Assembly (NCBI RefSeq): GCF_005771675.1
Contig: NZ_VAJM01000005.1
Coordinates: 310,001 to 374,000, forward strand
Length of the DNA stretch: 64,000 bases
Direction of reading: 5' to 3'
Source: Hymenobacter jeollabukensis
GTDB taxonomy: Bacteria > Bacteroidota > Bacteroidia > Cytophagales > Hymenobacteraceae
The position numbers were made by a program, and so were the translations under genes. The notes under the pieces are model-generated. The model had not been told where the DNA came from. It did not search any database and saw nothing but the letters and a program-made list of their open reading frames with translations. Shown here piece after piece: positions 3,119-61,092 of this stretch (within the stretch, counting starts at the first letter, position 1; every line of letters starts with the position of its first letter).

Positions 3119-3235
3119 TACAAAGGTAACAGGTGAGGAATGACAGGTGATAAGTAACAGGTGACAGGTAACACGTAACAAGTTGGAATGAGCATTACCT
3201 GTCATCTGTTACTTGTCACTTGATTACCGATTACC
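3119..3235. repeat. Octamer inverted repeat, GTGACAGG/TAACACGT family
   Basis: The left part is a run of words such as AACAGGTG, GACAGGTG and AGGTAACA; the right part holds their complements (TTACCTGTCATCTGTTACTT). Together they form an imperfect inverted repeat that fills the gap between the Nudix gene and plsC. The repeat-like sequence includes the last codons and TAA stop of the Nudix gene and reaches the plsC promoter. The same family occurs at 9851-9881 and 10302-10333. Confidence 0.75.
3121..3128 (-). promoter_or_regulatory. -7 promoter box of the plsC-gatC operon
   Basis: On the minus strand this reads TACCTTTG, a full match to the Bacteroidota TAnnTTTG box. It is 5 bases from the plsC ATG and sits at the edge of a degenerate octamer repeat, so transcription probably begins at or next to the start codon. 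Confidence 0.65.
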
Positions 3236-3787
3236 CAGCACCAGAGCCGCTTTCAGCAGGCCGGCCACGCTGATGGCGTCGGTGATGCGGTTGTCCATCA
3301 CCATCTGAATGGCTTCCCGGAAGGGCAGCTTCCAGAGGTGCAGCTCCTCGGTTTCTTCGTGCTCCATCTCGCCCTGCTCCAGGTCTTCGGCCAGGAACAC
3401 GAAGCCTTCCTCGTCGGTGACGGAGTTGGAGGGGTGCAGGCGGGCAATGTTGGTCCAGCGCCGGGCCGTCAGGCCGGTTTCCTCGCGCAGTTCCCGCTGG
3501 GCCGACTCCAAGATGTCCAGCTCCACCGGCCCGCCGCCCATCGGAATTTCCCAGCAGTACTCGTTGAGCGGGTAGCGGTACTGGCCCACCAGCCAGGTGT
3601 TGCCCTCCGCGTCGATGGGCACGATGCCCAGGGCCTTGTTTTTCATCGTGACCACCCCGTAGATGCCCCGGCCGCCGCGCGGGTTGATGACCTGGTCTTC
3701 GCGCACGCTGATCCAGGGGTTCTGGTACTTCAGTTCCGTGCTGAGCACCTGCCAGGGGTTGTGGGTTTCGTCGGGAGCCGGGTACAT
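3224..3787 (-). CDS. Nudix hydrolase, ADP-ribose pyrophosphatase-like
   Basis: The 187-residue protein has a Nudix box ending in RELREETGL, preceded by MGGGPVELDILESAQ. The spacer before RE is one residue longer than in the classic GX5EX7REUXEEXGU pattern. The N-terminal WQVLSTELKYQNPWISVRED and the YRYPL segment fit ADP-ribose/nucleoside-diphosphate-sugar hydrolases. The start is the ATG at 3787 (MYPAPDE); the upstream extension is GC-rich and promoter-bearing. A TAGCTTTG box lies 30 bases upstream. Its stop codon and last codons blend into the octamer repeat. The exact substrate cannot be read from sequence. Confidence 0.86.
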   Translation of the reverse strand: MYPAPDETHNPWQVLSTELKYQNPWISVREDQVINPRGGRGIYGVVTMKNKALGIVPIDAEGNTWLVGQYRYPLNEYCWEIPMGGGPVELDILESAQRELREETGLTARRWTNIARLHPSNSVTDEEGFVFLAEDLEQGEMEHEETEELHLWKLPFREAIQMVMDNRITDAISVAGLLKAALVLGNR

Positions 3788-3816
3788 ACGAGGGGCAGTT
3801 AGGTAGGTCTGGAAGG

Positions 3817-3824
3817 CAAAGCTA
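3817..3824 (-). promoter_or_regulatory. -7 promoter box of the Nudix gene
   Basis: Reads TAGCTTTG on the minus strand, matching TAnnTTTG, 30 bases before the ATG at 3787. No clear TTTG is seen 19-21 bases upstream. Confidence 0.5.
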
Positions 3825-4046
3825 GGAGCGTTTGGGCACTGCGACGCGGAATGCGGCGGTGGTTTTTCGGACTGCTGACCGTCGGGGGGCGGGCGCGAAG
3901 CCCGCTGCGGGACCTGGCGCGGCCCAGCCGCCGCGGCGCGAAAAAAAACCGGCGGCCGACTTAACATAGAGTTAACTTGATATCAGTGAAAGCCGTAACT
4001 TCCAAGTAAGCTGGCCGCTGACATTCCGGCCAGTCATCCGCACCTT

Positions 4047-4295
4047 ATGGCCAATTCGCAAAAAAACTCCGCCAACCAAACCACCAACGGCAGCAGCGGC
4101 GACCCGCTCTTCAATCTGAAGCACGCCCAGGCCGAATCGGAACTACAGCAGCAAACCGGTGGCCTCGGGCCGCTGACCAACGAATACATCAGCACCGACG
4201 AAGACGCCGAGCTGGACGAAGGCCCGCGGGACAGCCAGGGCCTGCGCCGCGGCGAATCACCCGACGTTATCGGCAGCACCGCCGGCCGACACTAA
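4047..4295 (+). CDS. Small acidic hypothetical protein
   Basis: An 82-residue, strongly hydrophilic and acidic protein (TDEDAELDEGPRD) without a signal peptide or membrane segment; it looks intrinsically disordered. It is a stand-alone transcription unit with an intrinsic terminator about 50 bases after its stop, which supports it as a real gene. I do not recognise a family. The overlapping minus-strand frame is less credible because it lacks a promoter and terminator of its own. Confidence 0.62.
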   Translation: MANSQKNSANQTTNGSSGDPLFNLKHAQAESELQQQTGGLGPLTNEYISTDEDAELDEGPRDSQGLRRGESPDVIGSTAGRH

Positions 4296-4343
4296 GCAAC
4301 CACGGAACATACTACTAGGCGCCTCCTTTCATGCCTATTTGCG

Positions 4344-4390: not shown

Positions 4391-4435
4391 GCCCGCGAGG
4401 GGAGGGGCGGCGCCCACCGAAGCCCGCCGGCGGGT

Positions 4436-4443: not shown

Positions 4444-4451
4444 CGGCCGTT

Positions 4452-5027: not shown

Positions 5028-5180
5028 GGTGGTGAAATAGTGAAATGGTGAGTTTAATGTTCAGACCGCCTCAACGCGCAGACGGCCCCGGCAACACGTG
5101 TTGCCGGGGCCGTCTGCGCATAGATACTGGGGATGGGAAGGTGCCGCGTGAACGTTAACTCACCATCTCACTAGTTCACC
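5028..5180. repeat. Octamer inverted repeat (GGTGAAAT family) around a 44-bp perfect palindrome
   Basis: The left arm (5028-5063) is built of GGTGAAAT, AGTGAAAT and GGTGAGTT words; the right arm (5149-5180) has the complements (AACTCACCATCTCACTAG). The left arm begins directly after the rnhB stop. The right arm contains the TGA stop of the convergent response regulator gene. Between them 5076-5119 is a perfect 44-bp palindrome (GCGCAGACGGCCCCGGCAAC then CACG-type centre and its complement). There is no T-tract, so a simple intrinsic terminator is not obvious. Confidence 0.85.
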
Positions 5181-8896: not shown

Positions 8897-8910
8897 AACG
8901 ACCAACCTCA

Positions 8911-9101
8911 GAACGTCATTCCGAGCGAAGTCGAGGAATCTCGCGTGCTGACTCCGGATAGTATTGTCATGCTGAGCTTGTCGAAGCATCTCTACCGAAC
9001 AATGGAGCGGTAGAGATGCTTCGACAAGCTCAGCATGACGTTCTTTTTACCCATTCAACGTCAGCAGGCGAGATTCCTCGACTTCGCTCGGAATGACGTT
9101 C
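8911..9101. repeat. Two nested perfect inverted repeats
   Basis: Outer arms 8911-8944 and 9068-9101 are perfect 34-bp complements (GAACGTCATTCCGAGCGAAG...). Inner arms 8966-8996 and 9009-9039 are perfect 31-bp complements (GTCATGCTGAGCTTGTCGAA...) with a 12-base loop. The element lies between gcvT and comB. Similar GTCATTCCGAGC and GTCATGCTGAGC repeats are common between genes in Bacteroidota genomes (recollection, not searched). Confidence 0.92.
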
Positions 9102-9130
9102 TACTTTATTACTTCCACCTCGAATCAACC

Positions 9131-9862
9131 ATGCCCTCCGTCGACATCTGTTTCTCCCCGGAGCTGCTGCCGCTCTACCAGCTCGAAGGCCGCGTGGCCG
9201 TCATCGTGGATATTCTGCGGGCCACGTCGAGCATCGTTACGGCCCTGGCCAACGGCGTGACCCACGTGTTTGCCACGGCCGAGCTGGACGAATGCACCGC
9301 CCTGGGCCGGCAGCACGGCTGCCTGACGGCCGCGGAGCGCAACGGCGTGCAGGCCGAAGGCTTCGACCTCGGCAACTCGCCCTTCGGCTACCTGCCGGGC
9401 AGCGCCCTCGAAACGCGGGGCCGGGCCGTGGCCATCAGCACCACCAACGGCACCCAGGCCCTGCGCCGCTCCCTCGGGGCCGACGCCGTCGTCATCGGCG
9501 CCTTCCTGAACCTGCAGGCCGTGGCCGACTTCGCCCGCCGGCAGCAGAAGGACGTGCTGGTGGTGTGCGCCGGCTGGAAGGGGCAGTTCTGCCTCGAAGA
9601 CACCGTCTTCGGCGGGGCCCTGGCCGAGCGCCTAGCCGACACGTTCGACGTGCGCAGCTCCGACGCGACGCTGGCCGCCCTGCACCTCTGGCAACAAGCC
9701 AAGCCCGATTTGGAAGGCTACCTGCTGCAGTCGGCGCACGTGCGCCGGCTCAATCACCTCGAAGCCCACCAGGACTTCGCGTTTTGCCTGCGCCTGGATG
9801 AATACCCGGCCACACTGCCCATCTGGCGCGAGGATCGGCTGGTCAATTTGGGTGACAGGTAA
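9131..9862 (+). CDS. comB: 2-phosphosulfolactate phosphatase family protein (ComB)
   Basis: The 243-residue protein resembles ComB: VAVIVDILRATSSIVTAL near the N-terminus, AAERNGVQAEGFDLGNSP, AISTTNGTQALRR and VVCAGWKGQFCLEDTVFGG. ComB dephosphorylates 2-phosphosulfolactate in coenzyme M biosynthesis in archaea; in bacteria the family may serve sulfolactate metabolism, and the true substrate here is uncertain. ATG 9131 is chosen; the upstream in-frame extension is intergenic repeat. The last codons and TAA (LGDR-stop) come from the start of an octamer repeat, so the C-terminus seems to have been modified by the repeat. Confidence 0.87.
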   Translation: MPSVDICFSPELLPLYQLEGRVAVIVDILRATSSIVTALANGVTHVFATAELDECTALGRQHGCLTAAERNGVQAEGFDLGNSPFGYLPGSALETRGRAVAISTTNGTQALRRSLGADAVVIGAFLNLQAVADFARRQQKDVLVVCAGWKGQFCLEDTVFGGALAERLADTFDVRSSDATLAALHLWQQAKPDLEGYLLQSAHVRRLNHLEAHQDFAFCLRLDEYPATLPIWREDRLVNLGDR

Positions 9863-10333
9863 CACGTAACACGTGACAGGTCAGGCATAAGCGGGCCCGC
9901 TGTCCGCTTCCATCTGCAAGCACCAGAGGCCCCTCCTTTGTACCGGACCCCGGTCGGCTGCACGGGAGGCCCCTCCTTTGTACCGGACCCCGGTCGGCTG
10001 CAGGGTACCCCCATCCGGCTGCAGCTGAACGTCATTCCCCTGCAGCCGGATGCCATTCCGGTGCAGGGAAATGCCAAACCGCTGCAGCCGGATGACGAAT
10101 CCCTGTAGCCGAATGCCACCCGGCTGCACCGGAATGGCAAATCCGTGCAGCCGGGTGGCAAACTGGTGCAGCCGGATGGCACTCGGCTGCACCGGAATGG
10201 CAAATCCGTGCAGCCGAGTGCCATCCGGCTGTAGCCGGGCGGGGCCCGGTGCGGCCGGGAGGGGACCCGGGCTTAGCCGTTAGCCCCCTCGGTGATTCCC
10301 CGCACCTGTTACCTGTCACATGTTACGTGTCAC
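9851..10333. repeat. Repeat block: octamer inverted arms enclosing 40-bp duplicates and a 20-21 bp array
   Basis: This gap between comB and mazG has no credible gene. Its ends are inverted octamer arms (9851-9881, GTGACAGGTAACACGTAACA; 10302-10333, complement type). Inside, a unit of about 37 bases (CCCCTCCTTTGTACCGGACC...) is repeated at 9927-9962 and 9967-10002 with a 40-base period. From about 9995 to 10240 there are about 11-12 degenerate copies of a 20-21 bp unit (consensus CCGGTGCAGCCGGATGGCAA), some in inverted orientation. Because the unit is near 21 bp, several frames stay open and give heptapeptide-like translations, probably by chance. Confidence 0.85.
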
Positions 10334-10660
10334 CTACTGCAGCTTCTCGTTCTGCCGGTGGCGGTCGGCGTCGCGCTGGGTTTTCTTTTCCAGGTTGCGC
10401 TGCAGGGCCTCGGTCAGGTCGACGCCGGTCTGGTTGGCCAGGCAGATGACCACGAACAGCACGTCGGCCAACTCATCGGCCAGCACTTTGTCGCGGTCGG
10501 AGGGCTTGAAGGACTGCTCGCCGTACTGCCGGGCAATGATGCGGGCCACCTCGCCGACTTCCTCGGTGAGCATGGCCATGTTGGTCAGCTCGTTGAAATA
10601 CCGCACCCCCGTGGTCTTGATCCACTGGTCAACGGTCTGCTGGGCTTCTTCGAGGGTCAT
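10334..10660 (-). CDS. mazG: MazG-like nucleotide pyrophosphohydrolase
   Basis: This 108-residue single-domain protein has the MazG metal-binding pattern: EEVGEVARI (EExxE) in the first helix pair and ELADVLFVVICLAN (ExxD) in the second. The family hydrolyses (d)NTPs to monophosphates and may have a house-cleaning role. The short length is like the single-domain MazG-type proteins rather than the tandem E. coli enzyme. ATG 10660 is immediately preceded by the GGTGAAAT octamer repeat, and the stop abuts the GTGACACG octamer repeat on the other side. Confidence 0.9.
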   Translation of the reverse strand: MTLEEAQQTVDQWIKTTGVRYFNELTNMAMLTEEVGEVARIIARQYGEQSFKPSDRDKVLADELADVLFVVICLANQTGVDLTEALQRNLEKKTQRDADRHRQNEKLQ

Positions 10661-10758
10661 GAGTGGTGAAATGGTGAGGTGGTGAAATAGTGAGTTTGAT
10701 GTTCTGGTGTAGGCGAGTTGAACGTTAACTCACCATTTCACCATCTCACCAGTTCACC
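10661..10758. repeat. Octamer inverted repeat (GGTGAAAT family) between dtd and mazG
   Basis: The left arm 10661-10704 (GTGGTGAAATGGTGAGG words) and right arm 10719-10758 (AACTCACCATTTCACC words) are complementary. The left arm ends one triplet from the mazG ATG; the right arm contains the TGA stop of dtd. It thus fills the whole dtd-mazG gap. Confidence 0.85.
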
Positions 10759-11194: not shown

Positions 11195-11238
11195 GAGCGG
11201 TGAAATGGTGAGGTGGTGAAATGGTGAGTTGGTGAATC
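11195..11238. repeat. Octamer repeat arm (GGTGAAAT family) upstream of dtd
   Basis: Five to six tandem words (CGGTGAAATGGTGAGG...) start three bases from the dtd ATG. A degenerate partner (CTCATTTCCTCACGCACTCA) lies at about 11337-11367, next to the start of the membrane glycosyltransferase-like gene. Confidence 0.75.
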
Positions 11239-17836: not shown

Positions 17837-19462
17837 ATGGAAACCATTGACCAGCCGCTCATTGCGGCCAAAACCGAGTACCGTTGCCCCGAGCGCGTGA
17901 AGGTACTCGGGCCTTACACCGATGCGTTTGCCGAAATCCTGACGCCCTCGGCCCTGGCCTTTCTGGCCGAGCTGCACCGGCATTTTGAAGGGCGGCGGCA
18001 GGAGCTGCTGCGGCGCCGGCAGCAGCGCCGGGCGGAGTTTGCCGCCGGCCGCCTGCCCGATTTTCTGCCCAAAACCGCCCAGCTGCGCGAGTCGGACTGG
18101 CAGGTGGCGCCGCTGCCCGCCGATTTGCAGGACCGCCGCGTGGAAATAACCGGCCCGACCGAGCGGAAAATGGTTATCAACGCCCTGAACTCCGGCGCCC
18201 GCACCTTCATGGCCGACTGCGAGGATTCTCTGGCCCCGACCTGGTCGAACGTGGTGCAGGGCCAGCTGAATCTGCGCGACGCCGTGCGCCGCAGCATCAC
18301 GCTGGAAACACCGCAGCGCACCTACCGCCTCACCGAGCGGCCCGCCGTGCTGCTGGTGCGCCCCCGCGGCTGGCACCTCAATGAGAAGCACCTGCTCATC
18401 GACGGCGAGGAAATCAGTGGGGCCTTGTTCGATTTCGGGCTGTACTTCTTCCACAATGCCCACGAGCTGCTGGCGCGGGGCACCGGGCCGTATTTCTATT
18501 TGCCCAAGCTGGAAAGCCACCTCGAAGCCCGGCTGTGGAACGAGGTGTTTGAGCTGGCGCAGTGGGCGCTGAAGATTCCCAAGGGCACCATCAAGGCCAC
18601 CGTGCTCATCGAGACGCTGCCGGCCGTGTTTGAAACCCACGAAATCCTCTGGGAGCTGCGGCAGCACTCGGCCGGGCTGAACTGCGGCCGCTGGGACTAC
18701 ATCTTCTCCTATATCAAAACCCTCGGTGCCCGGCCCGAGTTTCGGCTGCCCGACCGCGCCCAGGTGACCATGACCGTGCCCAACATGGCCGCCTACGTGC
18801 GCCTGGTCATCGATACCTGCCACCGCCGCGGGGTGCACGCCATGGGCGGTATGGCTGCGCAGATTCCCATCAAGGACAACCCCGCCGAAAACGCCATTGC
18901 CCTCGACAAGGTGCACCTGGATAAGCTGCGCGAGGCCCGCCTCGGCCACGACGGCACCTGGGTGGCCCACCCCGCGCTGGTGCCCATTGCCCGGGCGGTG
19001 TTCGACGAGCTGATGACCGCGCCGAACCAAATCGACAAGCCGCGCAGCGCCGAGCCGCTGCCCACCGCCGCCGAACTGCTGCGGGCCCCGCAGGGCACCA
19101 TCACCGAAGCCGGCCTGCGCCAGAACATCGACGTGGCGCTGCGCTACCTCGGCACCTGGCTGGGCGGCAACGGCTGCGTGCCGCTCTACCACCTGATGGA
19201 GGACGCTGCCACCGCCGAAATATCCCGGGTGCAGCTCTGGCAGTGGCTGCACACGCCCGACACATTCTTGGCCGACGGCCGGCCCGTCACGCCCGAGCTG
19301 TACCGCGCCTTGTTGGAAGAGGTGGTAACCAAGCTGCGCCGCGAGGTAGGGGAGGAGCCGTACACCGCGCTGTACCGCCCCGCCCTGCACCTGCTCGACC
19401 GCCTCGTGGTGGCCGACGACTGTGCCGATTTCCTCACGCTGCCGGCCTACGAGCGGCTGTAG
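17837..19462 (+). CDS. aceB: Malate synthase A
   Basis: The 541-residue protein is of malate synthase A length and has MADCEDSLAPTW, LVRPRGWHLNEKH, LETLPAVFETHEILWELR, and HAMGGMAAQIPI. It condenses glyoxylate with acetyl-CoA to malate, the second step of the glyoxylate shunt. I place the start at ATG 17837 (METIDQPLIA); an in-frame ATG at 17789 lies inside the promoter box. It is followed by isocitrate lyase 195 bases later, with a hairpin repeat between them. Transcription is probably controlled by the divergent RamB-like regulator. Confidence 0.95.
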   Translation: METIDQPLIAAKTEYRCPERVKVLGPYTDAFAEILTPSALAFLAELHRHFEGRRQELLRRRQQRRAEFAAGRLPDFLPKTAQLRESDWQVAPLPADLQDRRVEITGPTERKMVINALNSGARTFMADCEDSLAPTWSNVVQGQLNLRDAVRRSITLETPQRTYRLTERPAVLLVRPRGWHLNEKHLLIDGEEISGALFDFGLYFFHNAHELLARGTGPYFYLPKLESHLEARLWNEVFELAQWALKIPKGTIKATVLIETLPAVFETHEILWELRQHSAGLNCGRWDYIFSYIKTLGARPEFRLPDRAQVTMTVPNMAAYVRLVIDTCHRRGVHAMGGMAAQIPIKDNPAENAIALDKVHLDKLREARLGHDGTWVAHPALVPIARAVFDELMTAPNQIDKPRSAEPLPTAAELLRAPQGTITEAGLRQNIDVALRYLGTWLGGNGCVPLYHLMEDAATAEISRVQLWQWLHTPDTFLADGRPVTPELYRALLEEVVTKLRREVGEEPYTALYRPALHLLDRLVVADDCADFLTLPAYERL

Positions 19463-19555
19463 CGCGAACTTTTAGTTCGCGTATTCCCGAACCTCAATCG
19501 TTTCCCTGCTCGAACGGCCGTCGTTCTGAGCTACGCGAACGGAAAGTTCGCGCTA
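19460..19555. repeat. Double hairpin repeat (AGCGCGAACT family) between aceB and aceA
   Basis: TAGCGCGAACT-TTT-AGTTCGCGTA (19460-19482) and TACGCGAAC-GGA-AAGTTCGCGCTA (19532-19555) are each hairpins and are also inverted copies of each other. The first copy includes the TAG stop of aceB. The same element recurs at 56444-56468. Confidence 0.85.
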
Positions 19556-19657
19556 CTACCCCTTGCCGACTTCCTGCTCCGATGCTCCTAAAAAGCTTCG
19601 GCCGCTACGCCTTTGCCCTTTTCGTCCCCTTTTCCACAACCCAAAACCCCAAGTACC

Positions 19658-20944: not shown

Positions 20945-20948
20945 CGGG

Positions 20949-21219
20949 CGGTAGCACCGGCTGTCATTGCGAGCAAAGCGAAGCAATCCTCCCCCTCGCG
21001 GCACGACGGCCCAACCGGTACCAACCGAAAAACGGTACTAAACCATGGACCATCGACGCAACTCCCACGAACCAAAAACTCTTAACTGAAAACAGCACCG
21101 CCCGAAACCTCGCGTCTGAGGTTCCGGGCGGTGCTGTTTTCGGTTGGTGCCGGTTGGGCCGTCGTGCCGCGAGGGGAGGAATTGCTTCGCTTTGCTCGCA
21201 ATGACAGCCGGTGCTACCG
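20949..21219. repeat. Long inverted repeat (83-bp arms) with inner 23-bp hairpin
   Basis: Arms 20949-21031 and 21137-21219 are complementary with only a few differences; they include GTCATTGCGAGCAAAGCGAA and CGGCACGACGGCCCAACCGG. Inside, 21089-21111 and 21118-21140 form a second hairpin (AAAACAGCACCGCCCG...). The right arm contains the TAG stop of the convergent rnd gene. The GTCATTGCGAGC family recurs at 28091-28272. It may act as a two-way transcription stop. Confidence 0.92.
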
Positions 21220-22401
21220 CTGCGTGGCCCAGGGGAAGGGCTGGGCGATGAAGCCGTAATCGAGGCTGCGGGCCTGGGTCACGTCGCGCAGAATCTGCTG
21301 CTGCCAGGGGCGCAGGGCCGCGTCGGCGCCCAGCTCGATGATGTCGGCGATGAGGCGGTTGGAGAGGACCAGGTTGGCCACGTAGCTGTTCAGATCCTGC
21401 GACACGGCGCTTTTCAGGCCCATCAGAAACTGTTCACGGGCGTCGGCCTGGGCGGCTTTGTCCCCGTTGAGGCGGCGGCGGAAGGGGAAGCGCCGGGACT
21501 CGGCGGGCAGGGGCGGCTCGGGCACCGCGACGAAGTGGTCGGGCGAGAAAGTGAGCAGCTGGTCGAAGAAGGGCGGGCGCTTCAGCTCGGGGTGCAGGCC
21601 GCGGGCCGCTTTCCAGTCGGTGGCGCTGCGCGGCGTGTCGCGCACCAGCTCCGAGAGCCGGTCGTTGCTGAACACCATGTAGGGCGGGCGGTCCAGCTCC
21701 TGGGCCACTTTGTCGCGCAGCAGGTACAGGTCGCGGAACAGCGGCATTTCCTGGGGCAGGATGCGGTACTTGCTGGCCATGCGCAGGTAGGGCCGCTCGT
21801 CGCGGGTGTAGCGCACGTCTTCCAGGGCCAGATTTTCCTCGCTGGCCCAGTGCAGGCGGCCCAGGGCTTCCAGCTTGACGATGAGGCGGTCGGCCAGCTC
21901 CAGCAGGTAGAGCACGTCGTTGGCGGCGTAGATTTTCTGCGCCTCCGTCAGCGGCCGCTTCAGCCAGTTCGACTTCTGCTCACCCTTGTCGACCTCGATG
22001 CCCAGTTCGCTTTGGATGAGGCGGCCCAGCGAGATGTTGTTGTCCGATTCGGCCAGCAGGGTGTGCAGCACGCTGGTATCGGTGATGCGGCGCACATGCA
22101 CGTTGTACAGCTCGTCGAGCAGCAGGATGTCGGACTTGCAGCTGTGGAATACCTTTTCCACGGCCGGGTCGCTGAGCACAGCCCAGAGCGGGGCCAGCTC
22201 TTCGCCGGGGTTGGTCAGGGGCACCGGGTCGAGCAGGTACACGGTCTGCCCGTCGTAAATCTGAATCAGCGCCAGGTTGCGGCCGTAGTGGTGGCGCATG
22301 TCGTCGAACTCCAGATCGACGGCGAGGCGAGGTTGGGTATGCAGCCAGGCCGCGGCGTCCTGAATGGCCGCGGGCGTGGTGAGGTATTGAATTTCAGCCA
22401 T
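21214..22401 (-). CDS. rnd: Ribonuclease D
   Basis: The 395-residue protein has a DEDD exonuclease domain: LAVDLEFDDMRHHYG (D, E), KVFHSCKSDILLL (D) and YAANDVLYLLEL (Y...D, the DEDDy form). The C-terminal half includes an HRDC-like region (LRDKVAQELDRPPYMVFSNDRL). RNase D trims the 3' ends of tRNA and other small RNAs. ATG 22401. A weak TACCTTTA box is at 22467-22474. The stop codon is within the long inverted repeat. Confidence 0.93.
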   Translation of the reverse strand: MAEIQYLTTPAAIQDAAAWLHTQPRLAVDLEFDDMRHHYGRNLALIQIYDGQTVYLLDPVPLTNPGEELAPLWAVLSDPAVEKVFHSCKSDILLLDELYNVHVRRITDTSVLHTLLAESDNNISLGRLIQSELGIEVDKGEQKSNWLKRPLTEAQKIYAANDVLYLLELADRLIVKLEALGRLHWASEENLALEDVRYTRDERPYLRMASKYRILPQEMPLFRDLYLLRDKVAQELDRPPYMVFSNDRLSELVRDTPRSATDWKAARGLHPELKRPPFFDQLLTFSPDHFVAVPEPPLPAESRRFPFRRRLNGDKAAQADAREQFLMGLKSAVSQDLNSYVANLVLSNRLIADIIELGADAALRPWQQQILRDVTQARSLDYGFIAQPFPWATQR

Positions 22402-23739: not shown

Positions 23740-26364
23740 ATGTTCCGACCTCTCCTGCGTCTGCTGCCGGCCGCCGGCCTGGCGCTGGCCTTGCTGGCGG
23801 CGCCGGCCCAGGCCCAGACGGCCACCGCACCCCAGACGCCCGCGCAGTTTCTGGGCTACGCCCTCGGCAGCCGCTTCACCTACCACGCCGACGTGCTGCG
23901 CTACGCCGACTACCTCGCGCGGCTCTACCCCGAGCGCCTGCGCGTGCAGCCCTACGGCAAAACCTACGAAGGCCGCCCGCTGGAAGTGGTGCAGCTGGCT
24001 TCGACCCGCAACCTGGCCCGCCTCGACGCTATTCGGCGCAGTAACCTGCGCCGCACCGGCGTGGAAACCGGCACGCCCGACGCGGACCAGCCCGCCGTGG
24101 TGTGGCTGAGCTACAACGTGCACGGCAACGAGGCCGTGTCGTCGGAGGCGGTGCTGCAGGTGCTCTACGACTTCGCCAACCCGCAGAACGCCGACGCCCA
24201 GGCCCTGCTGGAGAAAGTGGTGCTGCTCATCGACCCCTGCGTGAATCCCGACGGGCGCGAGCGGTACGTGCAGTGGTACGGCCGGGTGGCCGCCGCGCCC
24301 ACCAACGCCGCCCCGCTGAGCTGGGAGCACCGCGAGCCGTGGCCCGGCGGGCGCTACAACCACTACCTCTTCGACCTGAACCGCGACTGGGCCTGGCAGA
24401 CGCAGCGGGAAAGCCAGCAGCGCATTGCGCTGTACAACCAATGGCTGCCCCAGGTCCACGCCGACTTCCACGAGATGAGCCCGGACGCGCCGTACTACTT
24501 CTCGCCCGCGGCCAAGCCCTTCCACGAGGACATCACGGCCTACCAGCGCCAGTTCCAGAACCGCATCGGCGACTACAACCGCCAGACCTTCGACAAGAAC
24601 GGCTGGCTGTATTTCACCCGCGAAACCTACGACCTGTTCGCTCCCAGCTACGGCGACACCTGGCCGTCCTTCAACGGGGCCATCGGCATGACCTACGAGC
24701 AGGGCGGCTCGGGCCGGGCCGGGGTGCGCTACATCAAGGCGGATGGCGACACGCTCACGCTCGGCCAGCGCATTGCCCACCACCACGCCGCCAGCTGGGC
24801 TACTATCCGCGCCGCCGCCGACCACCAGGCCGAGCTGCTGAAGGAATTCGGCCAGTACTACGCCGACGCCCGCCAGAAGCCGCGCGGGCAGTACAAAAGC
24901 TTCGTGGTGAGCGGCGCGGCCGAGCGCATGGCGCCGCTGGAAGAGTATTTGCGCCAGCAGCAGATTGAGTTCGGTTACCTGGGCCAGAAGCAGAAAACCA
25001 ACGCCTACAACTACGCCACCGGCAAGCGCGAAGCCGTGACCCTGCAGCCCCAGGACCTGGTGGTGAGCATGTACCAGCCCAAATCGACGCTGGTAAAGGT
25101 GCTGTTCGAGCCCCAATCAGCCCTGGAGGATTCGCTGACCTACGACATTACGTCCTGGTCCCTACCCTACGCCTACGGCCTGCAAGGCTACGCGCTTGTT
25201 TCTAAGTTGTCAGGAAAAGAGTTGTCAGTTGTCAGTAAAACGAAGCCCAGCCCGGCTACCCCGCCAACTGGCAACGCGCAGCTGACCCCTAAACTGAGCA
25301 TTGACAACCGGCAACTGGCAACTGACAACTCGCAACCCGCAACTCCCTACGCTTACATTGCCCGCTGGAACTCGCTACGCGACGCGCGGCTGCTGGCGGC
25401 GCTGCTGCAGCGGCAGATTCGGGTGCGGGTGGCCTACCAACCCTTCGAGGCCGGCGGGCGCAAGTTTCAGCCCGGGGCGCTTATCGTCACCCGCGGCAAC
25501 AACGAGGGCCTCTCCCGCCGCTTCGACGCGGTGGTGCGCCAGCTGGCCGACTCGGTGGGTGCCGAGCTGACGGCCGTGCAGACCGGCTTCGCCACCACCG
25601 GCTCCGACCTGGGCTCCAGCAACGTGCACAGCGTGGGCCGCCCCAGCGTGGCCGTGCTGGCCGGCGCCGGCGTCGACGCTTCGGCCTTTGGCGAAGTCTG
25701 GCACTTCTTCGAGCAGCAGCTGGGCTACCCCGTCACCGTGCTCGGCACCGATTACTTCGGCTCGGTCCCGCTGACGAAGTTCGACGTGCTCATTCTGCCC
25801 GACGGCAACTACGCCGATGCCCTGCCCGAGCGGCAGCTGGAGAACCTCAAGACCTGGGTGCGCGCCGGCGGCCGCCTCATTGCCCTGGAAGGCGCCATGA
25901 GCTACCTGGCCGGCAAAAAGGACTTCGCCCTGAAAGCCAAAGGGACCGACACCACCCGCACCCGCAAGCCCGACCCGGCCCGGCAGCTGCGCCGCTACGC
26001 CGCCGCCGAGCGGGAGTCTTTGCAGGAGCTGGTGCAGGGCAGCGTGTACCCCGTGCAGCTCGACAACTCGCACCCGCTGGCCTTCGGCTACGGCGACACC
26101 TACTACGCGCTGGTGCGCAACCCGCTGAACTACCAGTACCTCGGCGAAGGCAGCTGGAACGTGGGCATGCTGCGCAAGGGCCAGGCCGCGGCGGGCTTCA
26201 CCGGCAGTCAGGCCCGCCGCAAGCTCTCCGATACGGTGGTCATGGGCGTGCAGGAAATGGGCCGCGGCCAGGTCATCTACCTCGGCGACAACCCGCTGTT
26301 CCGCGGCTTCTGGCACGCGGGCAAGTTGCTGTTCAGCAATGCCGTATTCTTCGTGGGGCAGTAA
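23740..26364 (+). CDS. Secreted M14-family zinc carboxypeptidase-like protein
   Basis: The 874-residue protein has a signal peptide (LAAPAQAQ end), then an M14 peptidase domain with zinc ligands in YNVHGNEAVSSE (HxxE), the DPCVNPDGRERYV substrate-Arg region, LNRDWAW and VHADFHEMSP (third ligand His). The C-terminal part (about 640-874) looks like a glutamine-amidotransferase-like/flavodoxin-type domain with FDVLILPDGNYAD. It probably degrades peptides in the periplasm or outside. Residues about 489-535 are encoded by an octamer-type inverted repeat inserted in frame. A TACTTTCG box lies at 23691-23698. Confidence 0.88.
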   Translation: MFRPLLRLLPAAGLALALLAAPAQAQTATAPQTPAQFLGYALGSRFTYHADVLRYADYLARLYPERLRVQPYGKTYEGRPLEVVQLASTRNLARLDAIRRSNLRRTGVETGTPDADQPAVVWLSYNVHGNEAVSSEAVLQVLYDFANPQNADAQALLEKVVLLIDPCVNPDGRERYVQWYGRVAAAPTNAAPLSWEHREPWPGGRYNHYLFDLNRDWAWQTQRESQQRIALYNQWLPQVHADFHEMSPDAPYYFSPAAKPFHEDITAYQRQFQNRIGDYNRQTFDKNGWLYFTRETYDLFAPSYGDTWPSFNGAIGMTYEQGGSGRAGVRYIKADGDTLTLGQRIAHHHAASWATIRAAADHQAELLKEFGQYYADARQKPRGQYKSFVVSGAAERMAPLEEYLRQQQIEFGYLGQKQKTNAYNYATGKREAVTLQPQDLVVSMYQPKSTLVKVLFEPQSALEDSLTYDITSWSLPYAYGLQGYALVSKLSGKELSVVSKTKPSPATPPTGNAQLTPKLSIDNRQLATDNSQPATPYAYIARWNSLRDARLLAALLQRQIRVRVAYQPFEAGGRKFQPGALIVTRGNNEGLSRRFDAVVRQLADSVGAELTAVQTGFATTGSDLGSSNVHSVGRPSVAVLAGAGVDASAFGEVWHFFEQQLGYPVTVLGTDYFGSVPLTKFDVLILPDGNYADALPERQLENLKTWVRAGGRLIALEGAMSYLAGKKDFALKAKGTDTTRTRKPDPARQLRRYAAAERESLQELVQGSVYPVQLDNSHPLAFGYGDTYYALVRNPLNYQYLGEGSWNVGMLRKGQAAAGFTGSQARRKLSDTVVMGVQEMGRGQVIYLGDNPLFRGFWHAGKLLFSNAVFFVGQ
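25206..25345. repeat. Octamer/heptamer inverted repeat inside the M14 peptidase gene
   Basis: The left part has GTTGTCAG words (GTTGTCAGTTGTCAGT), the right part the complements (CAACTGGCAACTGACAACTC). It adds a Ser/Thr/Pro/Gln-rich linker without stop codon and keeps the frame. It looks like an intergenic repeat placed in coding DNA. Confidence 0.85.
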
Positions 26365-53300: not shown

Positions 53301-53384
53301 CCAAATGGTCGAATGGCTAAACGGTTAATTGTTGACCGTTCTGAAACGACAGCCATTTAGCCATTCCACAATTCAACAAGTAAC
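53301..53384. repeat. Octamer inverted repeat (ATGGCTAA family) between ctaB and the first subunit III gene
   Basis: ATGGTCGAATGGCTAAACGG and its complement type (CAGCCATTTAGCCATTCC) make an imperfect inverted repeat; GAATGGCTAAA at 53313-53323 pairs perfectly with 53355-53365. It fills the gap of 84 bases. Confidence 0.75.
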
Positions 53385-54763: not shown

Positions 54764-54856
54764 TGGTGAAATAGTGAAATGGTGAAATGGTGAGTTTGAT
54801 GTTCCAACATCCTCGCTATTTCACCATTTCACTACTCACCATTTCACTATTTCACC
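54764..54856. repeat. Octamer inverted repeat (GGTGAAAT family) between coxC and the subunit IV gene
   Basis: Left arm 54764-54804 (GGTGAAATAGTGAAATGGTG...) and right arm 54815-54856 (CTATTTCACCATTTCACTAC...) are complementary with a 10-base loop. The arms occupy the space from the coxC stop to four bases before the subunit IV ATG. There is no T-tract. Confidence 0.88.
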
Positions 54857-57171: not shown

Positions 57172-57186
57172 ACCACCCGACTGTTT

Positions 57187-57285: not shown

Positions 57286-60200
57286 GTGACCAAGCGTTTC
57301 CTCCCGCTGGGGCTGTTGCTGCTGGCTTTGCTGTGTTTTCTGGGCGCTTACCTGAGCAACCACGCGGCCGCCCCCGGCGTACTGGTGCGCACCGACGTGG
57401 CCCGGCTGCAGCAGCAGCTGACGGCGGCCGAGCGGCGGGCCGAGCAGGACGTGGAAACGCTAGCTGTGCAGCTGCTGCGCGGCCAGGGCAGCTTTGCCAC
57501 GCTGCAGGCCGCCGCGTACCCCACCTTCGTGTTTCGCAATGGGCAGCTGCTGTACTGGTCGGAGCACACCATGCGGCCGGAGGTGGCCAACGTCGGGCAA
57601 CCCTTCCGCGACAAGCTGGTGGAAATGCGCTTCGGCAGCTACCTGGCCATCCGGCGGCCGGCGGGGCCCTTCGTCATCCTGAGCTACGTGCCGCTGCGGC
57701 GGAAGTACGGCATCAGCAACCGCTACCTGCGCGAAGGTGGCCGCGTGCTATTCAAGGGCCTCGACCTGAGTCTGGTGCCGAATGCGCAGCGCAACCCTGA
57801 CCTACCGCAGCTGTTTTCGCACGACGGGCACTACCTGTTCTCGCTGCGCAGCCTGCAGCCCGACCCCATCACCGGCAAATACCTGCCCTTGGCGTTGCTG
57901 TTGCTGGGCACCGGCTTCTACGTAGCCGCCTGGCTGACCTGGGCCCGGCGGCTGTTTCGGCGGCGGCAGCCCTGGGCCGGCGCGGCGGCGGTGGTGCTGC
58001 CGCTGGCGCTTTTCCGGGCCGTGCTGCTGCATTTCAACCTGCCCTTCGCCTTCATCGAGCTACCGCTGTTCGACCCCAAGCTGTACGCGGCCTCCTGGGT
58101 GTCGCCCTCGCTCGGCGACCTGCTCATCAACGCCGCGCTGCTGCTCATCATTACCTGGTACGCGCTGCTGCTGTTTCGGCGCTACGGGGTGGCGCGCTAC
58201 GTGCGTCGCGTGCCCGGCCCTACCGGGCGGCTGGTGGTGGCCAGCTTGGCCTGCCTGAGCTTTTTCGGCGGCCTGCTGATGCTTTACTCGTTCTACCTCA
58301 GCTCGGTCAGCAACTCCCAGCTGGTGCTCGACGTGACGCAGAGCATCCAGTTTTCGGGCTTCAAGCTGCTGCTGTGCCTGGCCGTTGTGCTGCATTCGGG
58401 CAGCTACTTCGTCGGCTTCTGGCTGCTCACGCAGCTGTACCTGGCCGCCGTGCCGGCCGAGCCGCAGCCGGTGCGCCTGCTCGTGCTGGGCGCGGCCACG
58501 CTGCTGGTGCTGCCGGTGGCGCTGGCCCTGGGCGAAACCACCGGGGTGCTGCTGGGGCTGACGTTGCTGTTCTTCCTGGTGTTGCGCGTGGCCTCGCTGC
58601 GGCGGCTGGCGGGCGTGCTGCCGTTTCGGGTGGTGGTGTTTTTGTTTCTGATGCTGGGGCTGAGCGCCAGCGTGGGCTCGTTGGCCCTGTACCAGCACTT
58701 CAAGGAGCAGCTGATCCAGAACAAGCAGCGCCTGGCCGGCAACCTGCTCGTGGATAACGACCTGCAGGGCGAGTTTCTGCTGGCCGAGCGCGCCCACGAC
58801 ATTGCCGCCGACGGCGTCATCCGCACGCGCCTGGCCAACCGCTTCGCCAGCCAGGACGTGGTGCGCCAGAAAATTGCCAAGTATTACCTGCGCGGCTACT
58901 TCGATAAGTACGAGGTGCGCGTGAGCCTCTTCGACGGGCAGGGCCAGCCGCTCAACGAAGCCGACGGCGTGCTGTCGTTGGCCACCACGCGGGCCCAGCT
59001 GCTGCGCCAGGCCACGCCCACCGACCTGCCCGACCTCTACCTGGTCCACGGCAGCACGTTTTTCGACTCGCGGCGCTACGTGGCCTTCGTGCCGGTGCCC
59101 ACCGTGGCGGGCAACACCGCCACCGTGCTGCTGGAGCTGACGCTCAAGAAACTCACCGCCAACAGCGTGGTGCCCGAGCTGCTGGTCGACCAGAAATACT
59201 TCCAGCCCGGCCTGGGCAACGAGTTGAGCTACGCCGGCTACGAAAAGGGCCGTCTGGTGTACAGCGAGGGCGACTTCGACTACGTGAACGAGCTGCCCGC
59301 CGCGGCCCTGCGCGACCCGCGCCTGTACGCCGACGGGCTGGTGCTGGGCGGCGCCCATCATTTCGGGGTGAAAGGGCCCCAGCAGCGCACCGTGGTAGTG
59401 AGCACGCCCACCTACGCGGCGGCCGAGTGGCTGGCCAACTTCTCGTTCTGGTTTTTGCTGCACCTGCTGGGCGGGGGCTTCGTGCTGCTGCTGCTGTTTG
59501 CCCTGCGTAACCCGCGGCGGCGCTGGTTCCGCACCACTTTCTCGGCCAAAATTCAGCTGTTTATGACGGTGGGCATCCTCGCCACGCTGCTAGTGGTGAG
59601 CCTGGCCACCGCCAGCCTGTTTACCGACAGCTACAAGCGCGACCTGCGCCGCAGCTACGAGCGGCGCGGGCAGCTGGCCCAGGCCAGTATCCTGCGCCAG
59701 CGCAGTCTGCTGGCCGACTCCACCAGCCGCGGCCGTCTCGGCCAGCTGGCCGAAAACGTGTCGACGCTCACCGAAACCGACCTCAACCTCTACGATGCCC
59801 GCGGCGAGCTGCTGGTGAGCAGCCAGCCGCTCATCTTCGAAGCCGGCCTCATCAGCACGCTGATGAACCCTGAGGCCATCATTGCCCTGGCCGAGCGCGG
59901 GCAGCCGCGCATTCTGCTCACGGAGCGGGCTGGTTCCCTGTCGTTCAACACGCTGTACCTGCCCATCCGGGCGCAGTCGGCCTCGCCGGGCGGGGGGGCG
60001 GTGCTGGGCTACGTGGGCATTCCGTTCTTCGATTCGCAGAAGGACCTGAACACCAAGCTCACGGAGCTGACGACCACCATCCTGAACATCTTCACGGTGA
60101 TGTTCATCGGCTTTCTGCTGCTGACTTTCGTGGCCACGCGGGTGCTCACGCGGCCGCTCAAGCTCATCACCGAAAAGCTGCGCCACACCACGCTGACGGG

Positions 60201-60981
60201 CAACAACGAACCGCTGGCCTACGAATCGAACGACGAGCTGGGGCTGCTGGTGCGCGAGTACAACACCATGCTCCACAAGCTGGAAGACAGCAAGCAGGAG
60301 CTGGCCATGCAGGAAAAAGAGGCCGCCTGGCGCGAAATGGCCCGGCAGGTAGCCCACGAAATCAAGAACCCGCTCACGCCGATGAAGCTCAGCCTGCAGT
60401 TCTTGCAGCGGGCCCTGACGGAAAAGCGCGGCAACCTGGAAGAAATGATTGGCCGCATCTCGCAGACGCTCATCACCCAGATCGACGTGCTGACGGACAT
60501 TGCCACCTCGTTCTCGAACTTCACCAACCTGCCCGCCATGCGCCCCGAGCGGCTGGCCATTGCCCAGGTGCTGCGCCGCTGCGTGGCCCTGCACCAGCAC
60601 GTGCAGCTGGAAGTGGGGCCGGGCGCCGAGGACGCCAACGTCTTCGCCGACGAAAACCTGCTGGTGCGCACCTTCAACAACCTGCTGCTGAACGCCCTGC
60701 AAGCCATTCCGCAGGACCGCACCGCCGACGTGCGCGCCCGCGTAGAGCTGCCCCAGCCCGGCACCGTGCGCATCAGCATCCAGGACAACGGCAGCGGCAT
60801 CGATGAGGACGTGCGCGACCAGGTGTTCCGGCCCAACTTCACCACCAAGGAAACCGGCTCCGGCATCGGGCTGGCCGTGGCCAAGCGCGGCATCGAAAGC
60901 TCGGGCGGCCAGGTGTGGTTTGAGACGGTGGTAGGGGAGGGCACCACGTTCTTTATCGAGCTGCCGCAGGCGCCGGGGTAA
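57286..60981 (+). CDS. Large NtrY-like sensor histidine kinase
   Basis: The 1231-residue protein has a first helix, an extracytoplasmic region, then about eight helices, a second extracytoplasmic region (about 510-720), another helix pair with a third sensor region, HAMP (about 930-985), HisKA with H1024 in MARQVAHEIKNPLTPMKLSL, and HATPase_c with NNLLLNALQAI, DNGSGID and GSGIGLAVAK. The H-box is NtrY-type. No response regulator is adjacent. GTG 57286 (MTKRFLPLGL) is chosen because a TTG at 57211 lies in the upstream terminator. Confidence 0.9.
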   Translation: MTKRFLPLGLLLLALLCFLGAYLSNHAAAPGVLVRTDVARLQQQLTAAERRAEQDVETLAVQLLRGQGSFATLQAAAYPTFVFRNGQLLYWSEHTMRPEVANVGQPFRDKLVEMRFGSYLAIRRPAGPFVILSYVPLRRKYGISNRYLREGGRVLFKGLDLSLVPNAQRNPDLPQLFSHDGHYLFSLRSLQPDPITGKYLPLALLLLGTGFYVAAWLTWARRLFRRRQPWAGAAAVVLPLALFRAVLLHFNLPFAFIELPLFDPKLYAASWVSPSLGDLLINAALLLIITWYALLLFRRYGVARYVRRVPGPTGRLVVASLACLSFFGGLLMLYSFYLSSVSNSQLVLDVTQSIQFSGFKLLLCLAVVLHSGSYFVGFWLLTQLYLAAVPAEPQPVRLLVLGAATLLVLPVALALGETTGVLLGLTLLFFLVLRVASLRRLAGVLPFRVVVFLFLMLGLSASVGSLALYQHFKEQLIQNKQRLAGNLLVDNDLQGEFLLAERAHDIAADGVIRTRLANRFASQDVVRQKIAKYYLRGYFDKYEVRVSLFDGQGQPLNEADGVLSLATTRAQLLRQATPTDLPDLYLVHGSTFFDSRRYVAFVPVPTVAGNTATVLLELTLKKLTANSVVPELLVDQKYFQPGLGNELSYAGYEKGRLVYSEGDFDYVNELPAAALRDPRLYADGLVLGGAHHFGVKGPQQRTVVVSTPTYAAAEWLANFSFWFLLHLLGGGFVLLLLFALRNPRRRWFRTTFSAKIQLFMTVGILATLLVVSLATASLFTDSYKRDLRRSYERRGQLAQASILRQRSLLADSTSRGRLGQLAENVSTLTETDLNLYDARGELLVSSQPLIFEAGLISTLMNPEAIIALAERGQPRILLTERAGSLSFNTLYLPIRAQSASPGGGAVLGYVGIPFFDSQKDLNTKLTELTTTILNIFTVMFIGFLLLTFVATRVLTRPLKLITEKLRHTTLTGNNEPLAYESNDELGLLVREYNTMLHKLEDSKQELAMQEKEAAWREMARQVAHEIKNPLTPMKLSLQFLQRALTEKRGNLEEMIGRISQTLITQIDVLTDIATSFSNFTNLPAMRPERLAIAQVLRRCVALHQHVQLEVGPGAEDANVFADENLLVRTFNNLLLNALQAIPQDRTADVRARVELPQPGTVRISIQDNGSGIDEDVRDQVFRPNFTTKETGSGIGLAVAKRGIESSGGQVWFETVVGEGTTFFIELPQAPG

Positions 60982-60989
60982 AGGAGGGT

Positions 60990-61092
60990 AAGAGTTTAGA
61001 AGTTTGTGAGTTTAGGAGGATAAGAGTTGGGGAGTGGAAGACGTGAAAATTAACTCTTGCCTTCACAAGCTCCTGCCCTCTTAAACTATTGC
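60990..61092. repeat. Octamer inverted repeat (GTTTAGGA/TAAGAGTT family)
   Basis: GGGTAAGAGTTTAGAAGTTT and related 8-base words (about 60990-61038) face complementary words (AACTCTTGCC, CTCTTAAACTATTGCC) at about 61052-61092. The element sits between the NtrY-like kinase and the large envelope protein. The rest of the gap up to 61184 shows only a weak TTACTTCG box at 61145-61152. Confidence 0.72.

What the first reader, a model, noticed from the sequence alone, without database searches (positions are those of the whole stretch)
3119..61092. Several octamer-word inverted repeats end exactly at start or stop codons
In at least seven gaps (3119-3235, 5028-5180, 9851-10333, 10661-10758, 11195-11238, 54764-54856, 60990-61092) the DNA is made of degenerate words of about 8 bases, arranged as two complementary arms. 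The words differ between families but the layout is the same: arms touch or include the flanking stop codon (Nudix, response regulator, comB, dtd) or end just before the ATG (mazG, dtd, coxD). The 8-base period recalls the 7-base STRR repeats of cyanobacteria (known there), but the boundary precision and use as stop codons suggest an active, boundary-seeking process or a conserved role in RNA ends. This is the best candidate here for something undescribed.
Basis: partly seen in the sequence, partly recalled or inferred. Interest (0 to 1): 0.8.

Follow-up and report, generated by a model that had tools for sequence, protein, structure and literature searches.

The report
Swappable word-armed elements between bacterial genes
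In these Hymenobacter genomes many gaps between genes are filled, almost codon to codon, by hairpin-forming elements built from 7- or 8-letter DNA words; related species can carry completely different words in the same gap, and gene-bearing versions carry one small protein gene already known from inserts in ribosomal RNA, so several puzzling repeats may be one class of mobile element.

Summary
In 864 kb of the window's genome, arrays of period 7 and 8 are mostly intergenic (46/55, 41/49), and 46 two-armed elements nearly fill their gaps: 35 of 48 stop-codon edges lie within 10 nt, against 14 of 74 for other palindromes. Two of the seven named gaps have period 7; one has a single arm.

Two new results bear on it. 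First, at orthologous gaps other Hymenobacter genomes can hold arrays of different words with the same layout (11 gaps). Second, genes of one family (PF05635/TIGR02436: S23p, the four-helix bundle coded in 23S rRNA intervening sequences, IVS) are often enclosed by inverted arms: 19 of 23 in the genus (controls 6/176), 19 of 30 top loci of a Bacteroidota sample, 9 of 17 in other phyla (mispaired flanks under 2%). At two shared sites arms and S23p gene are both replaced.

Best reading: the gaps hold gene-less members of a class of IVS-like palindromic mobile elements, tolerated where a cut in the RNA is harmless; no boundary seeking is needed. Mobility and RNase III excision are inferred. Related word repeats were described in Xanthomonas and Geobacter.

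The parts
3126..3183 (.). Left arm of a two-armed 7-base-word element (GGTAACA/GGTGACA family, 'B') between acyltransferase and Nudix genes
   Evidence: (I16)
3195..3222 (.). Right arm of the same element, one nucleotide from the Nudix stop codon (3224-3226, minus strand)
5031..5054 (.). Left arm, GGTGAAAT octamer family ('A'), 3 nt after the RNase HII stop
   Evidence: (I21)
5071..5124 (.). GC-rich inner hairpin inside the loop of the same element, also in G002; other species have other hairpins in this convergent gap
   Evidence: (I15)
5157..5180 (.). Right arm, A family; contains the stop codon of the response regulator
9851..9881 (.). Left arm, 7-base B family; supplies the stop codon of comB
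   Evidence: (I19)
10303..10335 (.). Right arm of the same element, overlapping the mazG stop
10665..10696 (.). Left arm, A family, 4 nt from the mazG start codon
10727..10758 (.). Right arm, A family; contains the stop codon of dtd; G005/G006 have AGTTTAAG words here, G001/G003/G004/G007 a bare 28-30 nt gap
11199..11236 (.). Single A-family array (no inverted partner found in the gap), 4 nt from the dtd start
53304..53373 (.).
54765..54796 (.). Left arm, A family, 2 nt after the COX3 stop
54818..54856 (.). Right arm, A family, 4 nt before the COX4_pro start; G006 has other octamers here, G003/G004/G005 K words
60982..61028 (.). Left arm of AGAGTTTA octamers ('D') directly after a stop codon
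61051..61096 (.). Right arm of the same D element (read by eye), roughly 90-100 nt short of the next coding sequence
   Evidence: fold

Best explanation
Each gap holds one member of a class of small palindromic mobile elements whose two arms are tandem degenerate words of 7-9 bases in inverted order. The class includes coding members that carry a gene of the S23p/TIGR02436 four-helix-bundle family between the arms, the protein encoded by intervening sequences (IVS) in some 23S rRNA genes; the window's copies are gene-less members. Shown here: the anatomy; enclosure of many S23p genes by such arms in several phyla; replacement of one element by another (different words and, at two sites, a different S23p) at the same orthologous site; change of arms by whole words. 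Inferred: that the elements move, that S23p (or an enzyme it recruits) acts on the arms in trans, that the long RNA hairpin is cut out of transcripts by RNase III as IVS are, and that this is why they are tolerated where RNA continuity is not needed, i.e. between a stop and the next start (or at some rRNA helices). Codon-close edges then follow from purifying selection, not from a boundary-seeking machine.
For: S23p link: 23 PF05635 loci in 7 of 8 Hymenobacter genomes; inverted arms scoring >=14 in 19 of 23, against 6 of 176 genes of 90-200 aa (Fisher p 9e-18); asking also for a word array on a flank, 19 of 23 against 2 of 176. Arms belong to many word families, including A with its core (L321 in G005) and A words in the window's own genome (L322, G000:C12:419342), and C (L310). 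Top-scoring loci of a 118-genome phylum sample: 19 of 30 (14 with array); best loci of 20 genomes found by an octamer pattern: 21 of 30 (18 with array), of which 9 of 17 (8 with array) outside Bacteroidota (Moorena, Gemmatimonadetes, Acidobacteria, Lentisphaeria); mispaired flanks 1.7% of 1177 and 17 of 1232. PF05635 is in 90 of 118 Bacteroidota genomes and 16 of 20 octamer-pattern genomes, 0 of 14 control genomes. Unit swap: between the same two genes (flanks 87% and 94% identical) G000 has A words + S23p, G002 GTAAGAGGG words + an S23p 45% identical; between another gene pair G001 and G007 have S23p 20% identical and other words, in both cases right after the stop and just before the ATG; at a third site S23p (79-94%) and words are both conserved. 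G005 has S23p-coding elements in gaps (131, 172) where other species hold gene-less word elements or other palindromes. Word swap without S23p: 43 of 83 co-occupied comparisons, 11 gaps. Family A loops share a core (25 of 32 vs 0 shuffled), as dispersed copies would. Arm indels between G000 and G002: 10 of 22 are multiples of 7 or 8. Coxiella's IVS has three tandem heptamers before its S23p gene, variable in number between strains, terminal inverted repeats and RNase III excision (PMC4990558).
Against: No movement was observed and no target-site duplication was established; species, not strains, were compared. Loops of families C, E2 and B show no shared core (9, 6 and 3 loops), so for them a copied unit is not shown. 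No S23p remnant was found in gene-less elements of the sampled stretches. G004 has no PF05635 match though it has K words in the cox gap. Four of 23 genus loci and 8 of 17 loci outside Bacteroidota do not reach the arm score. Protein similarity and word similarity correlate only weakly over 63 loci (Mantel r 0.09, p 0.0145), so S23p-word recognition is not shown. Word sites tend to stay palindromic after a swap, which also fits selection for a hairpin. The Coxiella authors think S23p is probably not expressed there.
Confidence: 0.6

Rival explanations
1. Neutral growth in situ: replication slippage in 7-8-base steps and hairpin-templated strand switching create and rewrite word palindromes in any non-functional gap; codons and promoters set the edges by purifying selection. 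S23p genes are only frequent passengers.
For: Whole-word indels (10 of 22 arm indels); loops unrelated in families C, E2, B (few loops); in the gap at 3116 the arm ends at an AAAGGTA box; arms enclose another hairpin in the loop in 4 elements and at window 5031; gap lengths of differently worded orthologous elements are more alike than chance (p 0.0075, 11 gaps). A polymerase-slippage hypothesis for heptamers is quoted in PMC4692102.
Against: The same words recur at dozens of sites of one genome (88 exact 14-mer matches) and in other phyla; family A shares a core; S23p genes are enclosed far above controls and at two sites differ together with their arms.
Confidence: 0.2
2. Selected gene-end hairpins: certain gaps need an RNA hairpin (stability, partial termination or binding of a repeat-recognising regulator), and any word family or terminator that supplies one is kept.
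For: Sites tend to stay palindromic when words are lost: of 6 distinct gaps whose words are lost between G000 and G002 (8, 53, 131, 133, 169, 171) 5 hold another palindrome and none is bare, while 63 of 509 rows of never-worded tandem gaps are palindromic; non-word occupants of word sites fold better (z<-3 in 46% of 61 rows against 26% of 307, p 0.0016; per gap only p 0.051); A arms match their own partner better than others (p 0.0012); divergent gaps are poorer (4 of 65 against 48 of 343, not significant, p 0.10).
Against: Bare 20-30 nt orthologous gaps exist in farther relatives (gaps 10, 170, 235); convergent and tandem gaps are used alike (9 of 76, 39 of 267); does not explain S23p enclosure or word arrays as such.
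Confidence: 0.15
3. REPIN/MITE elements moved by a RAYT (Y1 HUH transposase) or by reverse transcription.
For: Small palindromic dispersed elements; REPIN-like GTCATTCC palindromes occupy the same site in some species (gap 8).
Against: Y1_Tnp (PF01797) has no match in G005 and G006, which carry word elements; no strong word array lies within about 1.5 kb of any of 13 Y1 matches; RVT_1 has no match in 6 of 8 genomes.
Confidence: 0.04

Closest known systems
23S rRNA intervening sequences (IVS) with an S23p ORF, e.g. of Coxiella (PMC4990558; passages and sections 16, 19 read)
   Same: Terminal inverted repeats forming a long stem around an S23p gene; tandem heptamers before the gene, number varying between strains; sporadic distribution; sites where a break in the RNA is tolerated.
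   Different: Ours lie between protein genes; most found in the sample are gene-less; arms are 7-9-base words; many word families per genome and swaps at one site; RNase III excision untested.
Xanthomonas GGGAATC and Nostoc GGGGA(C/T)T heptamer repeats (PMC4692102; abstract start, passages, sections 13 and 16 read)
   Same: Intergenic heptamer arrays, 70 and 75 inverted pairs in two Xanthomonas, most within 50 nt of a stop on the coding strand or of a start on the other strand, including overlaps with stops, under-represented in divergent gaps; most repeats between the same genes in two relatives with length and sequence variation.
   Different: One G-rich word family per genome, read as quadruplexes; in what I read no change of word family at a gap and no S23p. 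The only PDB hit of our S23p at E<=0.01, 2GSC (XCC0516), is from Xanthomonas campestris.
Geobacter metallireducens paired octamer/heptamer 'global regulator binding sites' (PMC2700814; passages read)
   Same: Four tandem degenerate octamers (GTTGCTYN) or five heptamers (MTYCTGA) per site, mostly in pairs on opposite strands at variable distance, several classes in one genome.
   Different: Interpreted there as regulator sites; no relation to gene edges, swaps or S23p in the passages read.
TAACTGA heptamer repeats of Beggiatoaceae, cyanobacteria and Bacteroidetes (PMC4679880; abstract, section 10 and passages read) and cyanobacterial STRR (recalled)
   Same: Intergenic heptamers close to start codons, 7-nt indels between strains, patchy spread over phyla.
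   Different: Direct repeats, one inverted case reported for the main genome; no palindromic layout and no S23p in what I read.
REPIN/RAYT and GTAG/CGTC REP families (PMC3116915, PMC3733652; passages read)
   Same: Small extragenic palindromic doublets, possibly mobile.
   Different: Defined 20-40 bp sequence, often with a Y1 transposase; not words, and no Y1 needed here.
Avd of diversity-generating retroelements (PMC10053308; passages read)
   Same: Same protein superfamily as PF05635; one of three tested S23p also matches the NCBIfam Avd model weakly (E 6e-5, below cut-off).
   Different: No reverse transcriptase match in 6 of 8 Hymenobacter genomes; no variable-region system was looked for.

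Membership tests
23S rRNA IVS / S23p elements | Long terminal inverted repeats forming one stem | tested here: met
   46 two-armed elements; median fold z -5.1 for 67 worded tandem gap rows; folds of six window gaps
23S rRNA IVS / S23p elements | S23p (PF05635) gene between the arms | tested here: not met
   Not in the window (one search finds none there); met by coding members elsewhere in the genus, 19 of 23 loci
23S rRNA IVS / S23p elements | Location inside a 23S rRNA gene | tested here: not met
   The window elements lie between protein genes
23S rRNA IVS / S23p elements | Excision from the transcript by RNase III | not testable with these tools
   No RNA data
Heptamer repeats (STRR, GGGAATC, TAACTGA) | Tandem 7-base units, intergenic | tested here: met
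   46 of 55 lag-7 arrays non-coding; but about as many arrays are octamers
Heptamer repeats (STRR, GGGAATC, TAACTGA) | Known word of those families | tested here: inconclusive
   By eye the words listed are others; GTTGTCA (TGACAAC) resembles TAACTGA; no systematic search for the known words was made
REPIN/RAYT | Y1 transposase in the genome, REP sequence beside it | tested here: not met
   No Y1_Tnp match in G005, G006; no word arrays beside 13 Y1 matches
MITE | Terminal inverted repeats of fixed sequence | tested here: inconclusive
   Family A has a conserved core and words; loops of families C, E2, B do not match each other (few loops)
MITE | Target-site duplication | tested here: inconclusive
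   No close empty/filled pair: between G000 and G002 no worded gap of 60-250 nt is bare in the other
Intrinsic terminator | GC-rich hairpin plus T run | tested here: inconclusive
   By eye the arms are words without a T run; the terminator scan tool was not run; some loops hold their own hairpin

The most novel reading that the evidence does not exclude
Heptamer and octamer word repeats of many bacteria, two-armed intergenic palindromes and 23S rRNA intervening sequences are one superfamily of mobile palindromic elements, mobilised in trans by S23p/Avd-type four-helix-bundle proteins. They invade sites where a break of the RNA is harmless (gene borders, existing hairpins, rRNA helices), displace one another there, and grow and diversify word by word; most copies are gene-less riders.
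Probability: 0.4. Interest if true: 0.93.

Novelty: new variant of a known kind. Interest (0 to 1): 0.84.

Why it matters
If true, it joins three unexplained things: intergenic 7-8-base repeats known since the cyanobacterial STRR (recalled), paired word repeats read as regulator sites in Geobacter or quadruplexes in Xanthomonas, and the S23p proteins of rRNA intervening sequences, for which the Coxiella authors could name no function. It gives S23p, matched in 90 of 118 sampled Bacteroidota genomes, a testable substrate (word arms), offers a reason why such repeats hug codons, and shows that DNA between genes can be replaced wholesale between species whose flanking genes stay about 94% identical, which matters for operon evolution and for annotation of gene ends.

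Tried and rejected
RAYT/Y1 and reverse transcriptase as general movers: rejected. 'Stop-codon cassettes' as a general rule: rejected, only family A is enriched. Translational coupling across the hairpin (stop and start brought together): not supported, convergent gaps carry elements about as often as tandem ones. Universal strand polarity: G-rich words read inward in 43 of 46 elements of the own genome; other palindromes are mixed overall (23 against 25) but not within classes (tandem 17 against 3, convergent 4 against 22), and the Moorena S23p arm L361 is C-rich inward, so it is no universal rule. S23p-word specificity: only a weak Mantel signal. A footprint of an older element in G002 beside L324 was considered and dropped: the shared letters look like the neighbour gene's last codons (by eye). 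Heptamer C pattern over the phylum: 2 of 148 genomes, too strict to be informative.

Rows set aside: the artefact pair W 10727/11230 (48 rows there; the 46 come from a new script). In one search the gene was not well found for some loci (for example L348, L351, L364, L367, L384, L387 have odd lengths); they stay in the denominators. Of 83 PF05635 loci, 74 were given to and 63 had arms to compare. Of 28 named Hymenobacter loci, 7 matched the own 864 kb.

Literature: 10 searches; no listing and no passage that I opened ties S23p genes to word arms outside rRNA; the library lacks most subscription journals. Papers were seen only as listings, abstracts, passages or the named sections; STRR and the TAnnTTTG promoter consensus are recalled.
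Full report
WHAT WAS CHECKED. Seven of 28 named Hymenobacter loci match the sampled part of it at 77-94% (best: H. edaphi), so the genus is taken as Hymenobacter. I called genes with a codon-usage script in 864 kb: the window and the first 400 kb of contigs C1 and C12.

THE ARRAYS ARE REAL AND INTERGENIC. Scanning for self-similarity at fixed lags (24-base windows, at least 17 matches) gives 46 non-coding of 55 arrays at lag 7 and 41 of 49 at lag 8; other lags are few or mostly coding (non-coding/all: 5: 0/7, 6: 2/121, 9: 15/110, 10: 2/6, 11: 7/10, 13: 2/4). At least ten word families occur, among them GGTGAAAT (A), GGTAACA/GGTGACA (B), GTTGTCA/GTTGCGA (C), AGTTTAGG (D), AATTCTG/AATTATG (E), CAATGAA/CAATTAT (E2), CGTTTTT (H), AGGAGCT (I), AATGGCTA (K), GAATGAGT (F). 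Within family A the words follow [AG]GTGA[AG]NT; positions 1-5 are constrained by my search pattern, 6-8 are not (37 elements).

EDGES. Forty-six two-armed word elements in gaps of 60-300 nt were compared with 51 other palindromes of at least score 18 in the same genome. Stop-codon edges lie within 10 nt in 35 of 48 (controls 14 of 74), start edges in 48% of 44 (7% of 28); both edges in 35% (6%); random insertion would give 0.2-5%. The arm holds the stop codon at 38% of stop edges (controls 4%). In mazG-dtd the coding end differs between relatives; by my reading the stop of dtd is supplied by A words in G000/G002 and by D words in G005/G006. Edges are not always codons: in the gap 3116-3223 the box AAAGGTA, present in all eight genomes (one base nearer to the start codon in G001), lies between the start codon and the arm.

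SAME GAP, DIFFERENT WORDS. Using 200-nt flanks I paired 239 own gaps with G002 (198), G006 (195), G005 (148), G007 (118), G003 (113), G001 (23), G004 (20). Worded gaps coincide between species more than expected in all 15 pairs of six species, p<0.05 uncorrected in 13 (permutation within orientation, gaps 60-250 nt). In 43 of 83 co-occupied comparisons, from 11 gaps, the words differ. Examples: gap 171 (C12:309620, TAA...ATG): G000 AATTCTG/AATTATG, G002 AATGTG words (palindromic, below the array threshold), G006 GATGTGCT, G005 purine words, G007 AATTCTG, G003 CAATGAA; gap 131: G000 GTTGTCA, G002 GGTGAGAT, G006/G007/G003 AGTTTAGG-like, G005 an S23p-coding element; gap 119: G000/G002 GGTGA, G006 related GTGAA words, G007/G003 CAATGAA, G005 no called element; window cox gap 54763: G000/G002 A, G006 other octamers, G005/G004/G003 K (six of eight loci shown, G001 and G007 not displayed). 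The pattern does not follow relatedness: G000 and G007 share AATTCTG in gap 171 while G002, about 94% identical to G000, does not. Of 18 own worded gaps, G002 has 12 with the same words, 4 similar, 2 another palindrome (one with other words), none bare; in the reverse direction 12, 2, 4 and 1 neither, of 19 (gap 111 counts as similar there although its words changed). Never-worded tandem gaps are palindromic in 63 of 509 rows. Against a strict rule: farther relatives also show gaps with neither words nor palindrome (3 or 4 of 15-18 per species) and bare gaps of 20-30 nt (gaps 10, 235; gap 170).

CHANGE INSIDE A FAMILY. Between G000 and G002, 12 gaps with the same words have arms 90% identical, loops 85%, flanks 94%; 10 of 22 arm indels are multiples of 7 or 8. 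A arms match their own partner better than those of other elements (p 0.0012, 37 elements). In all nine families searched, inverted pairs stand in one order (64 of 64, relatives included), and G-rich words read inward in 43 of 46 elements.

WHAT THE CODING MEMBERS CARRY. In two G005 gaps the arms enclose a small gene. Its family is PF05635/TIGR02436, 'four helix bundle protein'; one of three tested proteins also matches the Avd model weakly, as PMC10053308 would suggest (passages); the only PDB hit is 2GSC/XCC0516. Of 23 PF05635 loci in 7 of 8 Hymenobacter genomes, 19 have inverted arms of score 14 or more, against 6 of 176 genes of similar size; with a word array on a flank as well, 19 against 2. 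The other four (L307, L309, L314, L327) have a periodic array on at least one flank, but so have 44 of 176 control genes, and for L327 that hit is not a convincing word array. The words differ: A (L321 with core, L322), B (L323), C (L309, L310, L314), D (L327, weak), E-like (L316, L325, L326), E2 (L317), H (L306), I (L318), K (L311) and others. So most word families of the window's genome have a coding counterpart in the genus. Outside it: 19 of 30 top loci of a phylum sample and 21 of 30 loci from genomes found by the octamer pattern, 9 of 17 of them outside Bacteroidota (with array 14, 18 and 8); mispaired flanks reach the score in 1.7% of 1177. PF05635 matches 90 of 118 Bacteroidota and 16 of 20 octamer-pattern genomes, 0 of 14 controls. 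The four without it (records titled Atribacteria, Piscirickettsiaceae, Paracoccaceae, Streptomyces) show the octamer array without a partner, but so do many of the genomes that have it.

UNIT SWAP. Three sites share their neighbours between species. At C12:419342, G000, G005 and G006 carry one S23p type (78-86% identical; the G006 gene has an in-frame stop) with GTGAA-type words; G002 carries between the same genes an S23p only 45% identical with GTAAGAGGG words. At the G001/G007 site the S23p proteins are 20% identical, the words differ (K; GATGAGCAG), and both elements begin right after the stop of one neighbour and end just before the ATG of the other. At the G000/G002/G003 site S23p (79-94%) and GTTGTCA words are both conserved. 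Words and protein thus changed together or not at all in this small sample. In G002 and G003 the tail of S23p at the last site is translated from the right arm (TDNSQLTTDN, PDNGQLKTDN).

MECHANISM. Coxiella's 23S rRNA IVS has terminal inverted repeats, an S23p gene behind three tandem heptamers whose number varies between strains, and is cut by RNase III; the paper calls it selfish and discusses transposition as one hypothesis (PMC4990558). The parallel is close. I therefore read the window's gaps as gene-less members of an IVS-like class. They sit where a cut in the RNA is harmless, which between protein genes means from stop to start; the edges need no targeting. How they move is unknown. 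Y1 transposase and reverse transcriptase are not required. S23p is the one protein family that I found with many word families and is the prime suspect; no other family was screened in this way, and neither mobility nor protein action was tested.

AGAINST. Unrelated loops in families C, E2, B (few loops), absence of S23p remnants in gene-less elements, the weak word-protein correlation, the missing PF05635 match in G004, and the palindromic character kept at word sites leave room for in-situ growth or for selection on hairpins. Xanthomonas and Geobacter papers show that paired word arrays, near gene ends in Xanthomonas, were seen before; what I did not find in print is the change of word family at orthologous gaps and the link of word arms to S23p genes outside rRNA (searches named in Tried and rejected).

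Noticed in passing
window 25216-25345: A GTTGTCA two-armed element lies in frame inside an 897-aa ORF with a Peptidase_M14 domain; the stretch between conserved flanks is 154 nt here, 130 in G002, 106 in G006, 82 in G005, 88 in G003/G004/G007, 100 in G001.
   Followed up: partly
window 8910-9102: Nested REPIN-like palindromes (GTCATTCCGAGCGAAG outside, GTCATGCTGAGCTTGTC inside); G002 has a GTTGTCA element and G003 a CAATGAA element in the same gap.
   Followed up: partly
window 9926-10238: Between the B arms: a perfect 40-bp tandem pair and GC-rich CTGCAGCCGGATG units of 21/42/63 bp with inverted copies; related-looking cargo in G002 and G001.
   Followed up: no
window 19452-19563 and G000:C12:345141-345242: Palindromes TAGCGCGAAC...GTTCGCGCTA whose outer TAG/CTA coincide with the called stop codons of the neighbours.
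   Followed up: no
window 20948-21220: 84-nt arms, 95% complementary, around a second inner hairpin in a convergent gap; different in G002.
   Followed up: no
G000:C12:199205, 216759, 313512 (L060, L061, L066): Period-9 words (AAATCCGTC) look like a further word family.
   Followed up: no
G000:C23:275263-275577 (L310): S23p gene with an in-frame TAA about 35 kb before the window; versions without it exist in G002 and G003.
   Followed up: no
window 3122-3128: An AAAGGTA box upstream of the acyltransferase start is present in all eight genomes and spared by the word arm; it resembles a Bacteroidota -7 box (consensus recalled).
   Followed up: no
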